Positions 15,374-64,000 of a stretch of DNA of 64,000 bases are shown here, piece by piece. The notes beneath the pieces are model-generated. The model was not told the origin of the DNA and did not search any database. It saw only the letters and a program-made list of their open reading frames with translations. Positions within the stretch are counted from its first letter, which is position 1. Every line of letters starts with the position of its first letter. Origin of the DNA: Pedinophyceae sp. YPF-701 (taxonomy: Eukaryota > Chlorophyta > Pedinophyceae); NCBI GenBank assembly GCA_916048055.1, contig CAJZHL010000027.1, forward strand, positions 58,034-122,033. The letters are read 5' to 3'. Position numbers and translations under genes: made by a program.

Positions 15374-16091
15374 ATGGGTCACCACGAGATCTGGAACTCG
15401 TAAGTTCCCCGCCTCCGCAACCCGCCGCGGGAATCCCAGCACCGCCGCGCAGGCGGCCGCTCCCTCCGGGCGCGCGCTCGCCGGCCCGCGACGGTTCAGC
15501 CGCCACCTGCGCGGCCCCGCACAGCTCCCGCGTTCAGTGCCCGAATGAACGCCACGTCGCTGACCTCCCGCCCCCGCCCGCCGTGCGCTGCAGCCACCCC
15601 AAGAACCAGTCCCGCGGCGGACGTGCGTGCCGGGTGTGCGGCAACCGTCACGGTCTGATCCGGTGCGTTTCCCCTCCTGCGTGCCACCCCCGCTTCGAGC
15701 GCGCGGGTGCCGCCAGCGTGGCCGCCCGCTCCGAGGGTGGCGCAGGCAGCGTTAGAGTCGATGCCGCGTGGTGCACCGGGTGGTCCCGGTGCCAAGCTTC
15801 TCCTTCGTTCCGCTCTATCCTCTTGCCGCGTCTGAGAGGATAGATCGCGGACCAGGAGGAATTCTTGGCATGGGGACCACCACCTGGTGCACCACAGCTG
15901 CACTGATCGACGCCTCCTGCGCCGCCCTCTCGGCGCACGAGATGCCCCCGCGCCCACGCCGTCCCGGCGCCGCTGCCCCGCCTCGGTCCAACCCCCCCCC
16001 CCGCCCCCCGCGCAGGAAGTACGGCCTCAACATCTGCCGCCAGTGCTTCCGTGACTACGCGGGCCAGATCGGCTTCAACAAGTACAGGTGA
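15374..16091 (+). CDS. RPS29: 40S ribosomal protein uS14 (S29)
   Basis: Small-subunit ribosomal protein. Three exons, 15374-15399, 15594-15662 and 16016-16091, join exactly to 56 aa, the normal length. Exon 1 gives MGHHEIWNS, exon 2 [20 protein letters not shown], exon 3 [20 protein letters not shown] then NKYR and the stop. The zinc-binding Cys-x2-Cys pairs (CRVC and CRQC) are present. WNSHP and the closing F-x-KYR resemble land-plant and green-algal versions rather than animal ones. Intron 1 has a canonical GTAAGT donor. Intron 2 (15663-16015) contains a long fold-back described separately. Identification is secure. Confidence 0.97.
15768..15895. repeat. Long intronic hairpin (imperfect inverted repeat) in uS14 intron 2
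   Basis: The left arm (about 15768-15823) begins GTGGTGCACCGGGTGG and ends TCTATCCTCT. The right arm (15835-15895), read in reverse complement, begins GTGGTGCACCAGGTGG and ends TCTATCCTCT. The arms pair over nearly 57 nt with a few bulges (near CCCGGTGCCAAG versus CCCCATGCCAAG) around an 11-nt loop (15824-15834). It lies wholly inside intron 2, so it would be transcribed with the pre-mRNA of a very highly expressed gene. Such an element could be a miRNA-like precursor or a small inverted-repeat transposon remnant; no flanking target-site duplication was obvious. Confidence 0.8.
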
Positions 16092-29741: not shown

Positions 29742-32700
29742 CTAGAGCCCTGCGAGGTCCGACCCGCTGTCGCTGTGGTCCGAGATGGAGAACGCGGCCT
29801 CCCGGTCCGACCCCTCGTCGATCGCGTCCTCCAAGAAGTCGATCTCGTGGCACGGCAGCGACGGGACCGTGGTCTGCAGAGGTCGGCAGCGCGCGCAAGC
29901 GTCTCGGCACATCATGCGCACCCTTCGCGGCTGCGCGACCGCAGCGGCGAGCGCAGCGCGCGCGCACGAGCGCCAGCGCTGCTCGCGCATGCGTGCAGCG
30001 CGGGGCGGGGCGCACCATTTGGGGCAGCTGCGGCAGCGGGAGGTTCCTGAGCTCCTCGGCGGTGGCGCGCGGCGAGGGGCCCATCATCGGCACCGTGCTG
30101 CCGTCCGTCATCACGACCGTGCCGTCCTTCGTCAAGACGCGCCCGTCGCCGGCCTTGGCCGGCATCACCATCACGCTCAGCGTCTTGGCGCGCGCCCGCA
30201 GCGCGTGGATGCGCACCTCCCGCTCCGAGTGCGTCTTCGGGACCGGCACCGGGAGCGCGCTCGCGGCCTTCTTCGGGCGCCACGGCGCTGCCTCCTCCGA
30301 GGGCCCGCCGGGCGCGGACGTGCGCGTCGCCGCGGCCCTGGTGGCCCTGGAGCTCATGTGCGCCGCCAGGGCCTGCCGGCGGTCCTCGGAGATCGCGGGC
30401 GGGACGGAGAACGACGTCTCGAGGGGCCCGCCGTGCTCGGCGTCCGCCGCGGCCAGCTGCGTCTGCGCGCACTCCACCGCGACCACGCCGTAGCCCTTCC
30501 ACGCCAGGAGGGTGCTGCGCAGCCACTCGAAGTCGTACCAGTAGCACGGGCGCTGGCCCGGCCGCGCGACGAGCAGCTGCGGTGTGCGAGGGGGCGGGGG
30601 CGGGTGGGCGAAGGGGGCGCGGCGGCGCGGGGGGCGGCGGGACGCGCGCGTCGCTGATGCGGGGGGTGTCACCTGTCGGACGGTGCGTCGGCCGCCGTAG
30701 CCCGCGTCCGCCTGCCACTCGCGCGCGGCGTGGATCAGCGAGTAGTGGTTCTCGAGGTGGAAGACCAGCGCCGCGCCCGTCCGCTGCAGCAGCTCCACGC
30801 ACCGCAGCCACTGCCGCGCCACGTCCGTCGTGGTGTCCTTCTCCGACAGGGACATCTCCCACCGGCCCCTGCCCGCACCGAGCAGCCTCCACACGTTCAG
30901 CCCGACCTGCGCGCGCGATGCGCACCCGGGCAGCGTCAGACGCCCGCACGACGGACGGAGGGCGGCGCCAGGGCAGGACGCATAGCTGGTCCCAGCCGCG
31001 TCGGCATGGGTGCCGCTCTGGGACGAAATCACGGACAAGATCCACAGCCACGCATCCACTGCGGCAAGAGGCGCGCCCAAGTTGACATTCCCCTTGTTTG
31101 TGGGTTGCGTTGAGGACTGGACGCTTCTTCTTCTTCAAAGGCTGCCCCGAAGGCGGTACACATGCGCACTTCGGGGCAGCCTTTGAAGTAGGAGAAGTCC
31201 CAGTCCTCAACGCAAACCATGAACGCGGGGAATGTCAACTTGCAAATGGTGGGCCGCGCATCGCATGTTGGGTTCCGTGCTGGAACAGGCGCACGGCCGT
31301 GGGCCTCGTCCGTGATCTCGTTCCCAGAACGGCATGCCAGCTCGACGCGCGCGAATTCCTCGGCGGCCTTCAGGCAGCACCCGGGCGCACCTGGTTGCGG
31401 TTCCCCAGCGTGCTGAGTGCCCACAGGACGCGGTCCGTGCCCACCGGCGCAGTGCTCGGCTGCGGCGGACTCAGCTTCTCCAGGGCGTTACTCTTCGTCG
31501 CCCACGTCGCCACGCGCGCCACCAGCGTCGCCCGGGCGCCGCCCAGCAGCGCCGCCGCCACCGCGGGCTTCAGCTGGCCCTCGGGGTCCCGCACGCCGCG
31601 GCCCGGCGCCGCGCTCGCGGGCCGCGACCGCACCGACGTCCGCTGCTGCCGCCCCTCCACCACCAGGCTGGAGATGTCGGACGAGTCAGCCCCGGACTCC
31701 CCCCCCGAGGCCCCGTCCGGCTGCTCCTCGCCCTGCCCGGCCTCCTCGACAGGCACGGCGCCGCTCGACGGCCCGGCCTGCGGCGGCCGCGCCCCCTCAA
31801 AGATCTCCACGGGCACGTCGGTGCGGCCGCGCGCCTTCTTCTTCGTCGCGCGCTTCTTTCCTGCGTGGCGACGCACCGGGACGGAGCACACGGTCGGCGG
31901 AGCGCGTCCGCGCGGACCTGCGGGGCAGGGTGGAGCGCTGCGCGTGCGCGCGCGCACCTGAGGGCTTCCGGGCAGAGCCCGGCCTGCGGGCGCTCGCGGG
32001 CTTCTCCTTTGGCGGCGCGGCCTGCTCCTGCTGCTCTGCGGCTTGAACCTGCGCCCTGTCGACGTCCGCGAACTTGCACAGCGACCTGCGGGCAGGCAGC
32101 GACGCGGAGCCGTTGCATCGCGACCTGCGGCGTGTGGTGTGCGGTTGGGTGGGTCATGCGTGTGTGTGTGTGTGCAAGGGCGAGGACGCACGCTTCGACG
32201 GCGTTCCGGCCGGGCTTGGTGCCGCGCTTGAGGATACCGTCGTTGCGGAAGTGCGCCGCGAGCTGGTCGAGCGACGCCAGCCCCGGCGGCGGCGCGGGCA
32301 CGAGGTGCCCCGACGCGTCGGCCTCTGCAGCGTCGAGCGCGCCGAGCTGCGCGGCGAGCAAGTTCAGCACCTGCTTCTCCGCGCTCGCCACCTCCTGGCC
32401 CCAGTGCTCGCGGTACAGCTCCAGCACGTCCTCCTGCCCCAGCTTGGGCGTCCCGTCTGCAACGCACACACAACAACGCCGACGCAGCGCGTCTCGCACG
32501 GCCGCACGCACGCGCGCGCGCACGCGCACGCCAGCCCTCCGCGCGTCCGGGCCGGGCGGGCGGCGCGCCTGGGAAGAGCATCGTCGCGGCGGGCTTGACG
32601 GCGTTCCACGCGCCCGCCACCGCCGCGGCCGCGCAGCACGGGCTGCTCTGCTCCACCCAGCCCGCGAGCGCGCCGTGGTCGAAGTACAGCTTGAGCCCCT

Positions 32701-40160: not shown

Positions 40161-41310
40161 GGCCGGTGCACCCAGCGCCGCGCTGGCACCGCCGACGCGC
40201 CCCCCACCTCAGACGCTCCGGCGCGACGTCCTCCTAGGGGGCCTCCTGGCCGCACGCCTGCGTGCACGGCGCGAGGGCGCCGTTGTGGGCGAGGACGGCC
40301 CGCCACACCAGCGCGAGCCCGGGGGGAGACGAGGGCGGGGACCGCGCGCTGCGGGGGCACCCGCGGCGCCCGCGAGGCGGCCCGCTCGCGAGCGCGGGCG
40401 ACTGGCTCGCGGCCGCGGCCGGGCGCGGGCGCCCGGGTCGCGTGTGGGCCGCCTCGCGGGCCCACGACGGAGCAGGCTCGCAGTGGCAATTTTGCCGGGT
40501 CGACGCAGGCGGTCGACACGGCGCACGGACCGGGCGCAGGCCATGGAAACATTGCGGTTCGGGGGGCGTGACGTTGCACCGCCGCGCGGGCCGTCCGTCG
40601 CGGGCCCGGGCGCCGTTCCTCGCTCCGCACCTCTAGCACGCCTCGGGGCAACGCGCTCGCCTCCTCAGCGCCGCTCGCGACCGTCGCCGCGCCTCGCTGA
40701 ATCACACAGACTGGCAATTCGCGGCGCGCGCCCGCCCATTCCCCCCCGCCGGTGCGTACGGGTGCCCGGACTCCCCCCAGGTGGCCCGAACCGGCCTCCG
40801 CCGGCAGCCCCGGGCTCTAGGGGAGCGGCTGGCGCGCGGCGGACGACCAGCAGGAGCCCGGGGTCGCGGTCGCAGCGGATCGTCCAGGTATTCGCCCCGT
40901 GCGCGCAGCCCTGCCCCTGCGTGTCACCTGTCACAACCTCGGCACCGCACAGGCGCCGCGTGCTGCCCCGGTGCTGCGGCCCGCGGACCAGCGCGACCGC
41001 GAGCGGACGCGTCCCGGCCCGACCTCGCGCCCCCGCCGCGCGCCGTGGCCGCGCTGTCCCTGCGTGGCCGTCGCGCCGCGGTCTCTGCGCTGGCGAGAGC
41101 GCGGGGCCCTGGCCGTGGCCCGTGCGCGCGGCGCGCTGCACGGAGCACGCCGACCTGCGTCCTCAGACCACAGCCCCTGGTCGAGGACGCCCGTGCGATC
41201 GCGTGGCGGCGCCTCCGCGCAGCAACGCACCGGGCCGCGCGTGAGGTCCCGCGGCCCCTCCGAGCTGCCTGTGCAGGTCACCCGCCGCCGAATAGCCACC
41301 GCTGCCCACC
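40161..41310. other. Divergent intergenic region EF-hand gene / USP14
   Basis: 1,150 bp between divergent starts, very GC-rich. Frames on both strands are Arg/Pro/Ala-rich shadows. No convincing gene, repeat or RNA element. It should contain the two promoters. Confidence 0.45.
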
Positions 41311-49586: not shown

Positions 49587-51731
49587 CTAGATGTCGTCCA
49601 CCAGGTCGCGGTACGACTGCTCCTGCTTGTGCTGCCGCTGGGCCAGCATGTCGAACATCTTCGCCTCGAACCCGTTGCTGCGGTCCACGCCGTCCCAGTG
49701 CCGCCCGGGGCGGATGCCTGCACGCCACTCCACACGACCCCACCGCGCGGGTGAGGGGCGCGCGAACGAGGACCGCACCACCGGCGCGCGACGCGGGCGC
49801 GTGCGAGCAGCGAGCGCGCGGGTCCGCGGCGCACCGTATCTGTTGAGCGGCGGCACGGCCTTGCGCTTGATCCACGAGTGCGGGGGCACCTCCTGCGGGA
49901 TGCGGAACCCCTTCGACTGGAAGAACCCCAGCGCGTCCTGCGCGATCACCGGCGCAGGGTCCTCCTCGCCGCCGCGGCGCCCGACCAGGTGCGCCATCGG
50001 GTCCCCCCAGCGCGTGCGCCGCCGCTGCGTGTCGTTCAGGTCGCGGTCCTCCTTCGTGACGATGAACTGCTTGCTCAGCTCGCGCCCTGCGTCCTCCCGC
50101 CGCGCGGCCACCTGCGCCTGCTGCGCGAGGCCCTGCGCCCACTCCGGGCGCTCCCCGCGCCGCTCGTCCCTGCTCAGCCCCTTGCGCTCCGCCTCGAAGT
50201 GCGACTTGTCCACCTGCGCGCGGGGCGGGCGCCGGCGGAGCTCGGGACGGACGCGCGACGCGGAGCAGCGCCCGCGCCGCTCGGGGTTGCGCGACGGAGC
50301 AGCTCCGAGGTCGAGAGGCGCGTCGGGGTGGGGGCGCACCTTGCGCCCGTGCTTGTCGCGGTACACCGTCTCCGCCGCGCGCCCCGTCTGCTCCTCCCCG
50401 AGCGCCTCGAACCTGCGCCGCTCCATGTCCGCCTTCTTCTGCAGCTCGTGCTTCAGCTCCTGGCCCTTGATCATGCCTGCGGGGGGCGGACGAGCGAACG
50501 GATGCAGCATGGGAGGCCCGCATGCACCCCGTGGAGGGGGCAGCAGGGCGGGTCAGCCAGGGAGGGCCGCGCAGGCGCCGGCGCGCACCTGCTTTGCTGC
50601 CGTCCGACATCTTGTTGATGTCCTTCGACGGAGGGGCCGCGGCGGGGCGACGCGGGGGCGACAGGTCGCCGTCGTCGGAGCGGGCGCCGCGCCGCGGGGG
50701 CGACAGATCGGCGGATCCCCTCCGCGGGCGTCGCGGCGGGGACGCGTCCGGGGAGTCGTGTCGAGCACGGCGCGGGGGCGACGCGTCCGGGGAGTCGTGT
50801 CGAGCACGGCGCGGGGGCGACGCGTCCGGGGAGTCGTGTCGAGCACGGCGCGGGGGCGACGCGTCCGGCGTGTCGTGTCGAGCACGGCGCGGGGGCGACG
50901 CGTCCGGGGAGTCGTGTCGAGCACGGCGCGGGGGCGACGCGTCCGGCGTGTCGTGTCGAGCACGGCGCGGGGGCGAAGCGTCGGGCGTGTCATGTCGAGC
51001 GCGCCGGGGCGGGGACGCGTCGGGCGTGTCGTGGCGCGCTCGCTTTTGTGCCGGGGGGGAGCCTGCCGCCGCCATCGACTTCTGCGCCTGCTCCTGGCGG
51101 CGCATCTGGAACTTGAACTCGTCGAGGTTGGCGATCGCGGGCGCGTCTTCCCCCTGCAGCGCAGCGCCAGGCGGACGCAGGTGCATACATCAGACAAGTC
51201 GGCGCCAGGTCATTCCGCGACGCAGCACGCGCCATCACGCGCACGCGCGGACCCCTTGCCGCCTCGGGGCCGCGCAGATCCCGGGGCCCTGCGCCGCTGC
51301 GCCACGCGGAGAAGACGACCCGCGGCCAGAGCGCCGCACACAGCTCTCACCGCGTTCAGGGGGTCCAGCTCGGCGTCGTCAGGCTCCGCGTCTGCGCGCG
51401 ACGGGGCCTTCGGGAGCGCTGCGTCCTCGTCCACGATGGAGATGGTCCCCGGCGGCGCGACCTTGCGCTTCCTCTTCTTCTTCTTCTTGGCGTCCTCCGC
51501 GCCCCCGCCGGTGTACTTCTTCAGGTAGTCCTGCGGCAGGGGGGCGGGCGGGAGGGCGGTGTGCGGCGCCGGACCCGACGGAGGCCGTGCCGCCTGCGTG
51601 AGCGGCCCGCGGGAGGGGGCGGGGGGCGCGCTCTGTGCGGGTCGCACCTGCATCTTCTTCTGCTGCTCGGACAGCTCGACAGGCTTCGCGTCCTTCTCCT
51701 CCTTGCGGAGGGATGACATTCCAGAGAACAT
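49587..51731 (-). CDS. BUD13: BUD13/CWC26 pre-mRNA splicing factor (RES complex)
   Basis: Subunit of the spliceosomal RES complex (BUD13, PML1, SNU17). About six exons; starts include ATG 51731 and ATG 51719. The start exon MFSGMSSLRKEEKDAKPVEL leads to DYLKKYTGGG, then a Lys-rich stretch, and VDEDAALPK, matching the EYLKRY...IVDDD start of relatives. A long central exon holds a 13-residue repeat RHD(T/S)PDASPPRRA in eight copies; human BUD13 has a similar RHD-SPPRR series, so the repeat is a family trait. The C-terminal Bud13 domain is clear: GMIKGQELKHELQKKADMER, DKSHFEAERKGLSRDERRGE, KGFRIPQEVPPHSWIKRKAV, and GIRPGRHWDGVDRSNGFEAK, whose IRPG-WDGVDRSNGFE is diagnostic. It converges with MCM4 (75 bp between stops). 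Confidence 0.93.
50733..51045. repeat. 39-bp minisatellite inside the BUD13 coding sequence
   Basis: About eight head-to-tail 39-bp units, based on GTCGAGCACGGCGCGGGGGC plus its flank, fall within one BUD13 exon and keep the reading frame (13 codons each). Unit variants differ at one codon (Thr or Ser before PDASPP). The DNA copies are nearly identical, suggesting recent expansion or homogenisation. Two more degenerate units follow toward 50650. Confidence 0.85.
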
Positions 51732-56274: not shown

Positions 56275-58437
56275 ATGCAGGCCCAGGGCCGCGAGGCCGA
56301 CGTGGTGGGCGGGAGCGCGGTCGAGCGCGAGTCGGCAACGGTGAGACATCCCCAGAACTGCTCAATGTGCGTTGCAGGCACGTTGCTTAGCGCGAGGGCT
56401 TGCCCACGCGCTGCTTAGCACATCAGCAGCTGATCCCGCGGCTCACAGTCGGCGCGCTCGATCCGTGGTGTGCAGAGACGTCGTGAGCGGTCTGGGGACT
56501 CCTTCGCGCGCGTCCTCTCGACGGTGCCCTCCATCCTCGACCTGCTCTCGGACGACGACAAGGCCAGCCTGGCGGCGACGTCGTGGAGCGTGCTCGAGGC
56601 GGTGCTGCGCGGATGCCGGGCGGTGCTCATAGTGAGCCCGCGCGACCCGGTCCTGCACGTTCTCGCGCGGCGGATGGACGACGGGCCCTGCGCGGGGGAG
56701 CTCCTCTTCTGCGGGCTGCGCGTGCCCGCGACGCACGCCGAGGCGCTGTTGGACGTGATGCGGGAGCTCGGCGAGGACCTGCCGGCGCGAGGCGACAAGA
56801 GCGACGCGCGGCACCGGAAGTGGTTCATGCTGGCGCGGAGGGTGACGACGTGGACCGACGAGGGGGGCGGCCCGCTGCGTTTGACCGGCATCGATGCCCC
56901 GGACGTCCACGGCTTCGCTTTCGACCGGAGTGCTCACAAGCGGTTGTTGCGTGAGATCCTCCTGTCGACTCCGGCGAGGGGATACCTGCGGTTCCTGCGC
57001 CTCGACTTTTGGGAGTGCCGCACATTTGAGCGCGAGGACCCAAGCACCGGCGAGGACATGGTCGCGGCGCTGCGGGACGCCGTGCGCGGCCTGACGGCCC
57101 TCGAACATCTGGACGTATCGCTGGACACCGAGGGCGGCAGGGTATGGGCTCGTGTGTTCGGCGAGCTCGGTTCCCTGACGCGGCTCACCATGAGTGGCGG
57201 CGACGACGACGTGTGGGACGCGGAGGAGACGCGGGCTTTCTGGAGCTGGATACAGCGGACTACGAAGCTGCGACAGCTCGAGATCCACGTCGAGTTCGAC
57301 ACGGGCACGCTGGCGGAGTTCAACATCGCCCCGCCGCGGTGCTTGGAGACCGTCGACGTGCGCAACTGTCTCAACGGCCATGGCTTCAGATGGCGCGACG
57401 CCGTGCACGTCCGCTCCCTGCGCGTGGCGCCGTGGGACGACGACCCGGCAAGCACGCAGGCGGAGATTGCCGACATGATGCGGTCAAGCAAAGCTCTGCG
57501 AGAGCTGCGCCTGGACTACTTCGACGCCCGGGACGTGACACATGCAGAGGTTGCAGCTCTGCCGCACAGCACGGTGGAGGTGTTCGAGCTCTCCATCTCC
57601 CGGGAAGCAGCGGCGAACCTCGAACGGATGTCGACAATGTCGGCGGCCCTGGTGGCAGCGCTCAGAGGCTGCAGCGCACTGCGAGAGCTGCGTATCTTTG
57701 GCCATGCTTATTCTGGGCCATGCGTGTTCAACGCGGCGGATGTTGCCACGGCTCTGGAAGGCAACACGCTGCTGCGCAAGCTCCGGTTGGACGCATGTGG
57801 GATTGGCGACGACGACGCCGCGCATTTTGGACGGGTGCTGGAACGCAACAGCTCTCTCGTTGCGTTGTCGCTGCGATATACCTGCCTGACGGTGCAGGGC
57901 GTGCGCGAGATCGCGTCAGGTCTCCGTCGCAACCGCACGCTGCAGCGGTTCGAGCTCGCCTCGAGCGGCGGGTGCGGCGCGAGCGGCGCGAAGGAGGTGA
58001 CGGATGCACTCGTTGGGGAGGACTCGGTGTGTCAGCTGCGGTGCCTGGGCCTCGTGGGTTGCGACGTCGGCGACGAGGGCGCTGTGCACCTTGCGACATG
58101 TCTGAAGGATCCGCGCTGCACGCTGCGCAGGCTCAGCTTGTACGGCAATGGAGTCGGCGACGCGGGTGCAGCGGCCCTGGCCACGGCGCTGGAGAAGAAC
58201 TCCACGCTGGAGTGGCTGTCTCTGGGCGGGACTCGCGTGGGGGAAAGCAGGACATACCGCATCTCCGACGGCGGCCTCAACGCTCTGGCAGCGGCGCTAG
58301 TGAAGAACCACACGCTGCGGACCCTGCGGGTCCAGGACTTCGTCCTACGCTCGTGGCATGGCGCGGCGACCGAGACAATGGACAGGCTGCTTGCGTGTGC
58401 GCAGAAGTACGCGAACGCGAGGCGTCGGCTGAATTGA
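56275..58437 (+). CDS. Leucine-rich-repeat protein (RNI-like) with F-box-like N-terminus
   Basis: Two exons: 56275-56340 (MQAQGREADVVGGSAVERES, AT) and 56476-58437. They join in phase across a 135-nt intron (ACG|GTGAGA...GTGTGCAG|AGA), giving about 675 aa; without exon 1 the long frame has no early ATG. The start of exon 2, VPSILDLLSDDDKASLAATS then WSVLEAVLRGC, has the LP-x-L--LS-D---L-----W layout of an F-box. The rest holds leucine-rich repeats of the RNI (ribonuclease-inhibitor) type: LRELRLDYFDARDVT, LRKLRLDACGIGDDDAAHFG, LVALSLRYTCLTVQGVREIA, LRRLSLYGNGVGDAGAAALA and LEWLSLGGTRVG. Such proteins can be substrate adaptors of ubiquitin ligases or large algal LRR families; I cannot tell which. 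It is nearly intronless, unlike its neighbours, and lies beside the repeat-rich end of the window. Confidence 0.75.
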
Positions 58438-58740: not shown

Positions 58741-59409
58741 ATGGCCAGCCTCGCGGAGCACAACGTCGCTATCGCGGCAGAGTCCGCGCTGCGATGTGCC
58801 ATGTTCCGCCTGCACGTGCCGCGGCACCCCAAGCACGATGCAAGCACGACGACGCAGGTGCTTGTCTCGTTCGACGACAGCGATCGGGAGGTCCTGATCG
58901 CCCGCGGCCGCAAACACCTCACCCTGGACCTGGGAGCGGCGACGATCGCGTGGGAGGGCGGCGCTGCGGCGGGCGCGGAGATCTACAAGGCGGGCACGGT
59001 GTGCCTCGCGACCGTCGACGGAGACCGGGGGGCGCTACAGGTGATCGCGGTGCCGGAGGCGTGTCTCGTCGAACACCCGCAGCCGGGGGCGTTGTTCGAG
59101 GAGAGCTGCAGGTGGCAGGGGGCCCTTCAGCTGGGAGACGTCGACGTCGCGTCGCAAGGTGCGCCGGCACGGGCCACTGTGACGCGCTGCGTGCGGCTGC
59201 ATGCGCGCGTCTGCTTGGACGCTGACCCTGCGACTGCTGACGTGCGGCTGCCTCCGCAGAATCGGGCGCTGCGCTGTCGCGATCGAGCGTGTGGCATCCG
59301 TAGCGCGCGGGGGGGCCTGTGTCTCGTGAGCGCCGCGCCCCGCCGCCTGTCGGTCCTCGACCTGGAGGACGACGAGGATGGCGATGCGTCGGACGCGGAC
59401 GAGAGCTGA
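58741..59409 (+). CDS. Unrecognised protein with acidic C-terminus
   Basis: From ATG 58741 the frame reads MASLAEHNVAIAAESALRCA then MFRLHVPRHPKHDASTTTQV and LVSFDDSDREVLIARGRKHL, TLDLGAATIAWEGGAAAGAE and later VIAVPEACLVEHPQPG. This looks like one compact, mostly beta-rich domain, with no family I can name. It ends LSVLDLEDDEDGDASDADES, an acidic tail. The frame is open from 58741 to 59409. A GTGCGC donor at 59159 and a GCAG acceptor before 59260 are present, but removing that piece would shift the frame to an early stop, so I did not use them. An upstream exon (near 58490-58600) is possible. Real expression is likely because of the structured, ordered composition, but function is unknown. 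Confidence 0.5.
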   Translation: MASLAEHNVAIAAESALRCAMFRLHVPRHPKHDASTTTQVLVSFDDSDREVLIARGRKHLTLDLGAATIAWEGGAAAGAEIYKAGTVCLATVDGDRGALQVIAVPEACLVEHPQPGALFEESCRWQGALQLGDVDVASQGAPARATVTRCVRLHARVCLDADPATADVRLPPQNRALRCRDRACGIRSARGGLCLVSAAPRRLSVLDLEDDEDGDASDADES

Positions 59410-59784
59410 TCGGCGGCAGTTCTTGCCTGGAGCGGCGCCATCGCCAGGCGGGCCGTCTTGCTGCTCCCGGGGCCGGCTGTCGAGCTGCGGCGGCCTCGAC
59501 CCCGCGGCAGCTGGTGGACAACCATTCGTCTGCGTCTGCGGCGATCCATCACGCGAACATCTCAACGACGGGAGCACGTGGCTCTTGGTCGCGGGCGCTT
59601 GCGACAACAGGTCGGTCTGGTGTGCGACGGGGTGGTGGTGGTCGTTGCGCGGCTGGTGCGCTTGGGCGACACGAGCGTCGTCGCCGGCGGAGGCGGCGCG
59701 GGGCTCGACCCGGCGCGGTCCTGCGCGGCGGAGGCGTCCGCACAACCATGGCGAGAGGCGCAGGGCGACAAGAGGCCGCGCGCG

Positions 59785-61370
59785 CGCCGGGCGGCGGCTG
59801 TGCGGCGGTGCGCGTGCGGGCCAATGCAGTGGGACTCGCTGGGCGCGTCGAGTGCTCACGCTCGAGCCGCCCTGTCCATGCGCGCCTGCGTCCCTGCCAC
59901 ATACATGGGCATGCGCTGGTGCGCGGCGAGGGGGTCCCTGCGGCGTGACTTGTGCGCTTCGACCGTGCACGCGGACCGGCGGCCTCGATGCCTGCGCTGG
60001 CAGTGGGCGAAACGTCACAGCGCGGCGGCACGACGCGGAGGCACCTGTGCATTTGGCGCGCTGTTTACGGCACGGCAGGAGCGCCGTGCACGCGCTGGCA
60101 GCTGGCCCGTGGATGGACACATCGTTACTACAAGCGGCGAGGTGAGCTGCGGAGGAAGCGCCGACGATCGCAGCGGGCAGCGGGCAGCGACGCGTGTCGC
60201 GACGCATCATCGCGGCGCGAGGCGCACGCGGCGGCGACGCCAAGCTCAGGCGACGAAGCTTCGCGCACAGAGCCTCCATCATCTGCACTGCACGGAGCCG
60301 ACGACGCGCCTGCATGGGCGCTGCTCGCGCCGGCGCTGGCGGGCGTGCTAGGTGATGACATTGCAGGAGGCGCATGAGCACGGTGCTGGCCGCGGGACGA
60401 GGGCGGCACGCCCCGGCAGCGAGCGTCCAGACGGGGGCCGGGCTGCGAGTGGCGCGCGCGTCCACTGCGTGCCGCGAACGTGGTGGGGAGCGGAAGCGCC
60501 TGCGGCGTCAACGCGGCGGGGAGTGCGGCTGTTGGGGGGAGCACGAGGGGCTCGCTCGGACGCCCATCGCGCCGTGCGAGATGCGCATGGCGTGTGCGAG
60601 GCTGAGCTCGGCGAAGATCGTGGTGCGCCCGCGGTGCGGCGGGCAACGGGCGTGACGCAAGGATGCACGCAACGGCGAGTCGCGCGCGGCGGCGACGTCG
60701 ACCCCGGTCGATCAATGCCCGCGCGGGGATCGCCCGTCGTGAGTGCCACGCGGGCGCGGCGACGCGTTCCCACGGAGGCTGCCTGCGCCGGCGCTGCGGG
60801 GCGCGCGAGGTGGTGACGTTGAAGGGGGCCGCTTGCGCACGGCGCTGGCCGGGGCCGGAGAGCGGCATGCGTCGGCGACGAGCGGCGAGGCGAGGGCTCG
60901 CAGATGATCGGCGTGCGTGGCGCCTGCGACCCATCAACGTGGCATGGACCCAGGGGGGCGAGTGCGACGTCAATGAGCATGGAGTCGCCGCAGGGGGGGG
61001 GCGCGGAGTGGCCCGCTTGCGCCGTGGCAGTTGCGTGCGGCGAGTGCGAGGCTCGTGCTTGTCGGCGACCGTGGTGTGCGGGCCGTCAAGCTGGAGGTCG
61101 GCGTTCCGCGATGTACGCGACAACGTGCGCAACTGGCGATGTGCGCGAGGGGGCGACGATGCCAAGTCCGGGCGATCAACGCCCGTGCACGGAGCCATCG
61201 TCATCTTTGCTGCGCGTGGTCGACGACACGCGCCCGGGGGTGCTGCCAGCAGCGGTGCTGCGAGGCCTGCGGGGAACGATGCTGCGGGAGGCGCTTGAGC
61301 GCGGCGCTGGCCGCGGGATCGGAGCAGCACGCCTCGGCAACGAGCTAGGAGACGGGCTAGGTGGTGGACG
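59785..61370. repeat. Degenerate tandem repeat, period about 460 bp, at least three copies
   Basis: The marker GACG(C/AT)GCCAAG...GGCGA, followed by GATCAA(T/C)GCCCG(C/T)GC(A)CGG or a degenerate version, appears near 60240, 60700 and 61165 (spacing about 460 bp). Following blocks also correspond, for example GCGCCGGCGCTG-GGGC and GCGCTGGCCGCGGGA (about 60380, 60841, 61306). Copies are strongly diverged, so the array is old. No copy keeps a clear reading frame. A fourth, weaker copy may begin near 59785. Confidence 0.6.
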
Positions 61371-61409
61371 GCGTGCACGGCGTCTGCGACTCGTCAGGGC
61401 GGCAGGGAC

Positions 61410-61665
61410 CGAGAGATTGGGCAGTACAGCGCGGAAACGCTGCCGCGCTGGAAAGCGCTGTAGGACGTCCTCGCAGCGCTCCTCGAGCACCACCACATCG
61501 GGGTGGTTGGCGCGGAACGTTGCGGCCGCGGCCGCGTCGCTCTCGATGGCCCACCGCATCGAGACTGCCTGCCCCCGACGTTACGAGGCCCGTGGAGAGC
61601 CCCCCCGGCGCCGTAGCATACGTCCATCGCCCGCAGCCGGGCTCCTGTTGCGTCGTTGTTTTTCT
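61410..61665 (-). pseudogene. Fragment of a cytosine-5 DNA methyltransferase (DNMT1/CMT-like)
   Basis: On the minus strand, motif I of C5-methyltransferases (DVF-GAGGLS-GL) is readable as DVCYGAGG followed, after a one-base shift in a run of Gs, by GLSTGLVTSGAG. A second shift then gives MRWAIESDAAAAATFRANHP and DVVVLEERCEDVLQRF, which matches the next part of the DNMT1/chromomethylase catalytic domain (KWAIEYDEPAAEAF-LNHPEA-VF-DC). The sequence ends soon after; the PCQ catalytic motif IV and the rest are absent. Two frameshifts and loss of most of the domain make it a pseudogene fragment. The part carrying motif I is also one arm of the inverted repeat at 61570-61824. Confidence 0.7.
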
Positions 61666-61824
61666 TGCCATTGGTCGTCCGAGGCGGCGATCGCGGCGTC
61701 GCGGACCGCGGCGTCGGACGACACCGGCAACAAAAACAACGACGCAGCGGGAGCCCGGCTGCGGGCGACGGACGTCTGCTCCGACGCCGGGGGGCTCTCT
61801 ACGGGCCTCGTCGCGTCGGGGGCG
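61570..61824. repeat. Inverted repeat built from DNA methyltransferase sequence
   Basis: The left arm (about 61570-61690) and right arm (about 61703-61824) are reverse complements, about 89% matched over the outer 100 nt by eye. Key shared stretches: GCCCCCGACG...GAGGCCCGT, ACGTCC(A/G)TCGCCCGCAGCC and GCGTCGTTGTTTTT. The centre is a GC-rich short spacer (around 61691-61702), so transcripts could fold into a nearly continuous double-stranded stem. The right arm, read on the plus strand, gives an intact DVCSDAGGLSTGLVASG (motif I of C5-methyltransferases), while the left arm carries the frameshifted copy. Confidence 0.85.
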
Positions 61825-62011
61825 GTTTTTCCACCGTCGGGGGCGGGTTTTCTACCGTTGACGCCGCTCCTTTTGGCGTCGTCGGTGCCCTGCTGGATGC
61901 CACCTTGATTGGAGGCGTGCTATAGGCCGAGCAGTGTAACTGTTTCTGTTTCTGAGGTGCGAATAATCGTCGCCACCCGTATGCGTCGTGAACTCGTTCG
62001 CCCATGACTGG
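61825..62011. other. Spacer between the inverted repeat and the tandem duplication
   Basis: Short AT-richer stretch. I see no gene. GC content drops here and stays lower to the window end. Confidence 0.4.
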
Positions 62012-63540
62012 CCTTAGCGACTAATGGGTCTTAGATGTATTACGGAAGCAGTGGTAGTCAGGGTGGAGTACCTGGGTGGGGGTTCTAGTTGAGTCCGGTA
62101 CCTGCTGGGGGGGGGAGGGTGGAGGTGCTACCACTGCTACGGATGCCTCTACTGCCTCTACTTTGACTTTGGCGCGCCTAAGACGACGCGCGCCGGGTGT
62201 TTCGCGCCTGCCCGCAGTAATCCGCGTCACGGACCACCGTAACATGCGCGCGGCGCACCCTACGACGGCCGGACCGCGGAGGTACGGGCCGCCGGAGTGG
62301 GATTTTTCGGAAAAGCTCTGGACGGGAGGGTACATTTCGGGCGCTGGCGTCGTGGTGCGGGCGCCGGTGGTGCTGGATCGCGTGCCCCCAGCGCAGTGGG
62401 TCGCGGGACGCCCTCTGCGGGGGCGAGCGCGGGCGGCACGCGCGGTGTCGCGACGGGAGCGCGGTCTGAAGTTGGTAAATCTCCAACTAGGGGGGCCGGA
62501 GTATATCTGATTGGGTGACTCGGCAGTCACGAAACACAGTCTAGTCGTGACTCGGCACATATATATCTGATCAAATATGCCTCGTGACTCCTAAGATACC
62601 CGTCAAATAGGCATATCTGCGCCTATTTGTCGGTGCGCACTTTCAAATATAGACCAGGACGGGCGCGAGACGGGTCGAGATGGTGACCGTGTGCGGTGAC
62701 CGGAGTCAGACCACAGGCGAGTGCGCCACAACGGCGACCCGGGGTCGGCTGCGGGGTGACGTCGTGCAGATGTCACCCATCGAGCCGGAACAGCACGAGC
62801 AGCGGTAGACCTGCCGGAACGACCTTAGCGACTAACAATTAGGACTAAGATTTATTAGAGGTGGGTTGTATGGGTTACACACCACTTTGGCGCGCGATTG
62901 CGTTTGTTCTGGTCTTAGATGTATAGGTGCACAATAGGGGATGCCTCTACTGCCTCTACTTTGACTTCCGCGGGCCGTGGCGCGCGTAAGACGGCCCGCG
63001 CCGGGTGCTTTGCGCGTGCCCGCAGTAGTCCGCGTCACGGACCACCGTAAGACGGGCGCGGCGCACCCTACGACGGCCGGACCGCGGAGGTACGGGCCGC
63101 CGGAGTGGGATTTTTCGGAAAAGCTCTGGACGGGAGGGTACATTTCGGGCGCTGGCGTCGCGGTGCGGGCGCCGGTGGTGCTGGATCGCGTGCCCCCAGC
63201 GCAGCGGGTCGCGGGACGCCCTCCGCGGGGGCGAGCGTGGGCGGCACGCGCGGTGTCGCGACGGGAGCGCGGTCTAAAGTTGGTAAAACTCCAACTAGGG
63301 GGGGCAGAGAATATGCGATTGGGTGACTCGGAAGTCATGAAATCGTGTCTACTTATGACTCCGACCAATCATATATCTGCCAGATATGCCAAGCGTGACT
63401 CGATCAAACATAAGATTGACGACTCTCGTGAAATACACATATCTGTGGACACGCCGAGCGTGACTGGGGAGACCACAGCAGCTGCCAGAGACCACAGCAG
63501 CAGCAGCAGTAGACCTGCCGGAACGACCTTAGCGACTAAC
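62012..63540. repeat. Tandem duplication of ~0.7-0.8 kb, recent and highly similar
   Basis: The marker CCTTAGCGACTAA occurs at 62012, 62823 and 63527. Between the markers, a block at about 62142-62535 recurs at 62941-63340. Within roughly 245 bp of it (about 62263-62507 versus 63059-63303) I count only about seven substitutions. Open frames in this block exist on both strands (plus RYGPPEWDFSEKLWTGGYIS; minus EMYPPVQSFSEKSHSGGPYL), but the differences are mostly amino-acid changing in either reading, so coding constraint is not shown. This looks like a subtelomere-like or satellite-like segment. Confidence 0.75.
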
Positions 63541-64000
63541 AATTAGGACTTAAAATGTTAGGTTTTAGCGACGTACTACGGATGCGGCACCAGCTGTCCA
63601 GCGCGGTGTCGCGTGTGCGGTGTCGTGCACATTGATGGTCGAGTGAAAAAATCAGTCTTCGATTCTCGACTGAAGGTTCACACCACAGACATAAGACAAC
63701 CACTTGGGGTTCTTTCAGACTGACCAGTGGCGCGTGCACATGGGAGCTCGCTCTGCGCCATACGTAAGATAGGGGCGACGAGATGTCGAGGTGTCCGTCA
63801 ATCATGTCTGCTCGAGCGGCCCGCAAAGCCTCCCGGAGGTTTGCCGGCGGGTCGGTTGCGGCCGAGCACGTAAGATGAATGCATAAGACTGATGTTTGAG
63901 ACGAGCACGTAAGACGAAGCGTTGGAGAGACTGTGACTGGGAAACCAGGGTTCGATTCTTGATTGAACCATCCGCATATATCTGCGTAGTCATTGTCGAC
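63541..64000. other. AT-richer tail of the window with GTAAGA repeats
   Basis: Contains a near-repeat GAGCACGTAAGA(T/C)GAA (63867-63879 and 63904-63918) and a B-box-like GGTTCGATTC at 63949-63958. No gene is supported. Confidence 0.4.

What the first reader, a model, noticed from the sequence alone, without database searches (positions are those of the whole stretch)
61570..61824. DNA methyltransferase fragment arranged as an inverted repeat
A cytosine-5 methyltransferase motif I fragment is present in both orientations, with arms about 89% matched over about 100 nt by eye and a short GC-rich centre. Transcribed in either direction, it would fold into a long double-stranded RNA homologous to the motif I coding region of a C5-methyltransferase. 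If the parent gene exists elsewhere, this could be a trans-acting hairpin that silences it, giving feedback between small RNAs and DNA methylation. It may equally be an inert duplication product. The methyltransferase reading outside the arm (WAIESDAAAAATFRANHP) shows the fragment came from a real gene.
Basis: partly seen in the sequence, partly recalled or inferred. Interest (0 to 1): 0.78.

Follow-up and report, generated by a model that had tools for sequence, protein, structure and literature searches.

The report
Decayed inverted copy of methyltransferase fragment
A broken piece of a DNA-methylating enzyme gene sits in this eukaryotic genome as two mirror-image copies that could fold into a long hairpin; it looks like the scar of an old copying accident, and nothing here shows that it silences anything.

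Summary
The inverted repeat is real and slightly larger than described. Arms 61571-61697 and 61698-61823 match at 109 of 128 aligned columns, with a core loop of 11 nt. Either strand folds better than all 200 shuffles (z -20 and -23), and no other short-range inverted repeat in the window scores higher. The left copy, minus strand, is a DNMT1-like C5-methyltransferase fragment: read with X at two frame joints, phmmer gives 26 hits, all named DNMT1, best E 1.4e-5. The right copy stops at the arm's end. Both are decayed: two frame breaks left, a motif I Gly-to-Asp right. Arm differences show neither coding constraint nor G:U bias. No target-site duplication and no further copy in the window were found. 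The element lies between tandem repeats. Two more short-loop fold-backs stand clearly above chance in the window, one inside an RPS29 intron. Best reading: an aged, inert fold-back duplication of a pseudogene fragment. A silencing hairpin is possible but untested: no parent gene, transcript or small RNA could be examined.

The parts
61571..61697 (-). left arm: 5' part of the DNMT1-like fragment (sense on the minus strand), from upstream linker through motif I
   Evidence: alignment with right arm; DNMT1 match of the joined reading; codon comparison
61698..61823 (+). right arm: the same fragment inverted (sense on the plus strand); reads TDVCSDAGGLSTGLVASGA, with Asp where DNMT1 has the first Gly of its GCGG
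   Evidence: DNMT1 residues from the alignment; no protein hit of its own
61693..61703 (.). 11-nt loop at the centre of the core stem
   Evidence: arms 61571-61692 / 61704-61823
61455..61556 (-). left copy continues outside the arm: RWAIESDAAAAATFRANHPDVVVLEERCEDVLQR, aligned with DNMT1 just after motif I
   Evidence: ORF; alignments
61814..61858 (+). outer end of the right arm falls in a 21-nt unit repeated 2.1 times (CGTCGGGGGC recurs 21 nt on), a possible microhomology or slippage mark at the breakpoint
   Evidence: (91% matches), junction printed
60173..61413 (.). flank: diverged tandem repeat (60173-60953 against 60631-61413, 66%)
62141..63401 (.). flank: tandem repeat (62141-62590 against 62939-63401, 89%)

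Best explanation
An aged fold-back (inverted) duplication of a fragment of a DNMT1-like gene, now inert. Inferred course: a truncated methyltransferase copy lay in repeat-rich DNA; a broken or stalled strand folded back on a short palindrome near the present centre and copied itself outwards, giving a head-to-head inverted repeat with almost no spacer; synthesis ended at a CGTCGGGGGC stretch, where it joined the flank. The arms then drifted apart by about 13% at ungapped sites. Shown: the inverted repeat, its tiny loop, the DNMT1-like origin, the damage in both copies, the repeat-rich flanks. Inferred: the fold-back mechanism and the lack of function.
For: Near-continuous palindrome with an 11-nt loop. 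Both copies broken: the left copy needs three frames in about 60 codons, and the right lacks a motif I Gly seen in DNMT1. Arm differences: codon positions 2/3/5, pS 0.147 against pN 0.087, Fisher p 0.46, so no purifying selection is detectable in 32 codons. G:U-preserving changes are equal for the two strands in A, 4 and 4, with 7 transversions. Arm end marked by a 21-nt tandem repeat. Two other fold-backs with loops of 20 and 11 nt stand above 30 null windows (scores 93 and 59, null maximum 42), which suggests a recurrent local process. Flanks are tandem repeats and no Pfam domain is found in six frames of 59001-64000 at E<=0.1. Fold-back priming at breaks near short inverted repeats is described in yeast (PMC10622511, passages seen).
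Against: With 10 to 16 differences the tests for selection have little power. The arms still pair strongly, as a working hairpin would. The fold-back step is not observed, and no unduplicated relative was found to compare. Three fold-backs in 64 kb could also mean that hairpins are useful to this organism.
Confidence: 0.68

Rival explanations
1. A natural hairpin-RNA locus (proto-microRNA or hpRNA). Transcription through the palindrome gives a long hairpin, a Dicer-like enzyme cuts it, and the small RNAs repress the parental DNMT1-like gene or guide methylation.
For: Very stable fold on both strands. In Arabidopsis 16 young MIRNA loci arose by inverted duplication of coding sequence, and miR773 targets a C5-methyltransferase (PMC1790633, passages seen); miR823 cleaves CMT3 (PMC8352596, passages seen). 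A second fold-back lies in an RPS29 intron, and in Chlamydomonas many microRNAs come from introns (PMC4817775, passages seen). In fold-back B the inner arms show 5 G:U-preserving changes for the + strand and 0 for the - strand.
Against: No wobble bias in A (4 to 4), and the outer arms of B lean the other way (2 to 5). No promoter, transcript, small RNA or parent gene is in evidence. The arms have diverged about 13% from each other, and their likeness to any live gene is unknown.
Confidence: 0.15
2. A fold-back or miniature inverted-repeat transposon that carries a captured methyltransferase fragment.
For: Inverted-repeat shape; three fold-backs in one window; methyltransferase genes are known inside retrotransposons of dinoflagellates and charophytes (PMC5890265, passages seen).
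Against: No target-site duplication of 4-12 nt within 6 nt of the ends. No second copy in the window: the other matches to 61400-61900 are at most 43 nt with E>=0.026. The arm is coding sequence to its end and the copy runs on past it on one side only. No transposon domain in six frames of 59001-64000.
Confidence: 0.07
3. An assembly or sequencing artefact, such as a long read that turned back on itself at a missed hairpin adapter (mechanism recalled, from no call).
For: Artefacts of that kind give palindromes with almost no spacer.
Against: The arms differ by 16 substitutions and only 3 gap columns, unlike two readings of one molecule; the right copy is joined to other sequence at 61824 while the left runs on in coding sequence.
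Confidence: 0.04

Closest known systems
Young Arabidopsis MIRNA loci formed by inverted duplication of coding sequence (PMC1790633, passages seen; Allen et al. 2004 only as cited there)
   Same: Inverted duplication of a protein-coding fragment; both arms resemble the gene; diverged but still paired
   Different: Those have sequenced small RNAs and targets; here none could be examined
miR823-CMT3 and miR773-methyltransferase regulation in Arabidopsis (PMC8352596 and PMC1790633, passages seen)
   Same: Would be a hairpin RNA acting on a DNMT1/CMT-type methyltransferase
   Different: Those loci make a defined mature microRNA with shown cleavage or validated targets; this locus has no shown product
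Mu killer, an inverted duplication that silences MuDR in maize (PMC2563033, listing only; Slotkin 2005 as cited in PMC1790633)
   Same: Partial inverted duplication able to give a long hairpin
   Different: Mu killer derives from a transposon and its silencing is shown genetically
Fold-back inversions / replicative inverted duplications in yeast (PMC10622511, passages seen; PMC11724301, abstract start in a listing)
   Same: Inverted duplication round a very short spacer
   Different: Those are observed events in mutants and many are far longer; here the process is inferred from the scar
Retrotransposon-borne DNMTs of Symbiodinium and Klebsormidium (PMC5890265, passages seen)
   Same: Methyltransferase sequence in repeat-rich DNA
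   Different: No retrotransposon domain found round this fragment

Membership tests
DNMT1-type C5-methyltransferase (origin of the fragment) | Sequence similarity over motif I and the following WAIE region, DNMT1 best | tested here: met
   26 of 26 hits at E<=1 named DNMT1, best 1.4e-5, joined reading with X; one search reversed control, best 0.051, no methyltransferase. Subtype against CMT or DNMT5 not resolved
DNMT1-type C5-methyltransferase (origin of the fragment) | Intact catalytic domain (motifs IV, VI, VIII and others) | tested here: not met
   no convincing motif in six frames of the window (3 matches, none in a methyltransferase context); no PF00145 at E<=0.1 in 59001-64000. Both tests also miss the decayed fragment itself, so they only exclude an intact domain
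hpRNA / MIRNA locus by inverted duplication | Self-complementary foldback of gene-derived arms | tested here: met
hpRNA / MIRNA locus by inverted duplication | Transcription and discrete or phased small RNAs | not testable with these tools
   No RNA data held
hpRNA / MIRNA locus by inverted duplication | A target gene with extended similarity to the arms | not testable with these tools
   No genome held; one search found no relative in viral contigs (83 pattern matches, none confirmed)
hpRNA / MIRNA locus by inverted duplication | Arm changes that keep pairing on the transcribed strand | tested here: inconclusive
   A 4 against 4, 7 transversions; numbers too small
MITE / fold-back transposon | Target-site duplication | tested here: not met
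   none of 4-12 nt for A
MITE / fold-back transposon | Several copies with shared ends | tested here: inconclusive
   none in the 64-kb window; rest of the genome not held
Fold-back (replicative) inverted duplication | Inverted copies round a very short spacer | tested here: met
   loop 11 nt
Fold-back (replicative) inverted duplication | Short inverted repeat in the unduplicated parent at the turning point | not testable with these tools
   No unduplicated parent sequence found

The most novel reading that the evidence does not exclude
A hairpin-RNA locus born from a DNMT1-like pseudogene that feeds back on DNA methylation in a microalga, one of many gene-fragment fold-backs (three clear ones in 64 kb, one in a ribosomal-protein intron) that supply this genome with small-RNA precursors.
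Probability: 0.1. Interest if true: 0.65.

Novelty: new member of a known kind. Interest (0 to 1): 0.27.

Why it matters
As an inert scar it is ordinary: a partial inverted duplication of a gene fragment, useful mainly as a marker that such fold-backs accumulate here. If small RNAs were found, it would extend the link between inverted duplications and control of DNA methyltransferases, shown in Arabidopsis (miR823-CMT3, miR773), to another lineage, and would make the birth of regulatory hairpins directly observable in a small genome.

Tried and rejected
Parent gene: the genome is not held, and no relative was confirmed in viral contigs (83 pattern matches, none confirmed by tblastn at E<=1e-3).

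A complete methyltransferase gene in or near the window: rejected after the motif scan and six-frame Pfam scan of 59001-64000; both are blind to fragments as decayed as this one.

Rfam: no match in the window at gathering scores. tRNAs: none.

Transposon: no target-site duplication (fold-back B outer arms and C have 4-nt matches that 63-64% of random positions reach), no second copy in the window. Of ten ORFs of 56-64 kb given to Pfam, only the LRR gene at 56470-58434 matched.

Coding constraint on the arms: not detectable. Pairing constraint: no overall bias; B inner arms 5 to 0 for the + strand taken alone would lean towards pairing, but B outer arms are 2 to 5 and C 3 to 2.

Coding origin of fold-back B: two typed readings gave no Pfam family at E<=0.1, so its origin is open.

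Organism: not identified. GC of 68-78% in 31 of 32 two-kb blocks (59.6% in the last) fits Diacronema lutheri (73.25%, PMC8379373, passages seen) but was not tested further.

Full report
The observation. Between 61571 and 61823 the window holds a near-continuous palindrome. Aligned end to end, the left half (reverse-complemented) and the right half share 109 of 128 columns, with 16 substitutions and 3 gap columns. The repeat finder splits it into ungapped blocks at 90% and 91%. The core stem leaves an 11-nt loop. Folded as RNA the plus strand reaches -236.9 and the minus strand -233.5 kcal/mol, z -20.3 and -23.3, with 0 of 200 shuffles as good in each case. In a scan for inverted repeats within 200 nt of a centre it scores 153; in 30 windows resampled from local dinucleotide frequencies the best score was 42. 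It is not chance.

What the arms are. The left copy is read on the minus strand. It begins in a linker (NGKKNNDATGARLRA), passes motif I (MDVCYGAGG), shifts frame, goes on as LSTGLVTSGAGSL, shifts frame again, and continues outside the arm as RWAIESDAAAAATFRANHPDVVVLEERCEDVLQR. With X at the two joints, phmmer against PDB sequences gives 26 hits at E<=1, all named DNA (cytosine-5)-methyltransferase 1, best 1.4e-5, aligned across motif I and WAIE. The reversed query gives three hits, none a methyltransferase, best 0.051. Evidence from single pieces is weak: WAIESD alone E 0.1, with 16 of 17 hits DNMT1; the right-arm peptide no hit; Pfam PF00145 at 12.1 bits against a cut-off of 22. The frames of the joined reading were chosen by eye for likeness to methyltransferases, which makes its E-value somewhat generous. 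The right copy, on the plus strand, reads AASDDTGNKNNDAAGARLRATDVCSDAGGLSTGLVASGA and then loses similarity at 61824. It is open in frame but has Asp where DNMT1 has the first Gly of GCGG in the alignment. So the two copies face away from each other (head to head), and both are damaged in different ways.

Selection. Over 32 comparable codons there are 10 differences at codon positions 1, 2 and 3 in numbers 2, 3 and 5; pS is 0.147, pN 0.087, Fisher p 0.46. There is no detectable protein constraint since duplication. If RNA pairing on one strand were maintained, changes of the G:U-preserving kind for that strand should be in excess; they are 4 and 4, with 7 transversions. With so few changes neither test is strong.

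Surroundings. On the left lies a diverged tandem repeat (60173-60953 against 60631-61413, 66%), on the right another (62141-62590 against 62939-63401, 89%). Six frames of 59001-64000 gave no Pfam family at E<=0.1. The nearest recognised gene is an LRR protein at 56470-58434. The right outer end falls in a 21-nt unit repeated 2.1 times, so that CGTCGGGGGC, the arm's last ten bases, recurs 21 nt further on. No target-site duplication flanks the element, and no further copy lies in the window.

Not alone. The same scan finds two more clear fold-backs: B at 31078-31242 (score 93, loop 20; outer arms 30997-31049 / 31295-31349 found by blastn) and C at 15733-15929 (score 59, loop 11). Alone, they fold with z -18.0 and -8.2. 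C lies inside an intron (about 15663-16015) of a ribosomal protein S29 gene, recognised by its two exons (PF00253, E 7.9e-11). A fourth peak, at 40368-40461 (score 43), is barely above the null maximum of 42. Short-loop inverted repeats thus recur in this window, which weakens the case that this one was kept for its methyltransferase content. It also leaves open the bolder reading that such hairpins have a use.

Organism. The window holds eukaryotic genes (MCM, UCH-type deubiquitinase, VPS53, emp24 family, S29) at 68-78% GC in 31 of 32 blocks. No genome is held for it. The pavlophyte haptophyte Diacronema lutheri has 73.25% GC (PMC8379373, passages seen), which makes it a candidate, not an identification. 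Haptophytes have DNMT1-related enzymes, reported in three of four species examined (PMC9998398, passages seen). In Emiliania huxleyi Dicer and Argonaute homologues and 18 candidate microRNA precursors are reported, with doubts stated about the Dicers (PMC4839659, passages seen). So, if the guess is right, both a parent gene and a silencing pathway are plausible.

Mechanism. The best-supported account is a fold-back duplication: an end folds on a short palindrome and copies itself, leaving inverted copies with almost no spacer. Such events are described in yeast near short inverted repeats (PMC10622511, passages seen). The near-absent loop, the one-sided extension of the left copy and the repeat at the right junction fit; the event itself is inferred. 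Since then both copies have decayed. The rival, a hairpin-RNA locus acting on the parent gene, has good precedents in Arabidopsis (PMC1790633; PMC8352596; passages seen) and intron-derived microRNAs in Chlamydomonas (PMC4817775, passages seen), but has no evidence here beyond the shape. A transposon and an assembly artefact are less likely, for the reasons given in their entries.

Literature. Eight text searches were made. None listed a methyltransferase-derived inverted repeat in an alga, but they were not aimed narrowly at that, and I do not claim that none is in print.

Verdict. Observation confirmed; origin of the fragment confirmed as DNMT1-like for the left copy; function as a silencing hairpin untested and not favoured. 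New member of a known kind, low to modest interest.

Noticed in passing
30997-31349: Second long fold-back: inner arms 31078-31152 / 31169-31242 (87%), outer arms 30997-31049 / 31295-31349 (80%); folds with z -18.0 (31060-31260). Its arms are poorer in GC (0.52) than the window; two possible coding readings gave no Pfam family.
   Followed up: partly
15733-15929: Third fold-back (77% arms, loop 11 nt, z -8.2) inside an intron, about 15663-16015, of a ribosomal protein S29 gene.
   Followed up: partly
62141-63550: Tandem repeat unit (62141-62590 against 62939-63401, 89%; 62790-62846 against 63494-63550, 95%); no Pfam domain. The last 2 kb of the window drop to 59.6% GC.
   Followed up: partly
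60173-61413: Strongly diverged tandem duplication (66% over about 800 nt) that ends where the methyltransferase fragment begins to be recognisable.
   Followed up: no
50693-51033: Tandem array of a 39-nt unit (7.7 copies, 93% matches) in open frames on both strands; one frame reads repeated RARHDTPDASPPR.
   Followed up: no
40368-40461: A very GC-rich inverted repeat, score 43, barely above the null maximum of 42.
   Followed up: no
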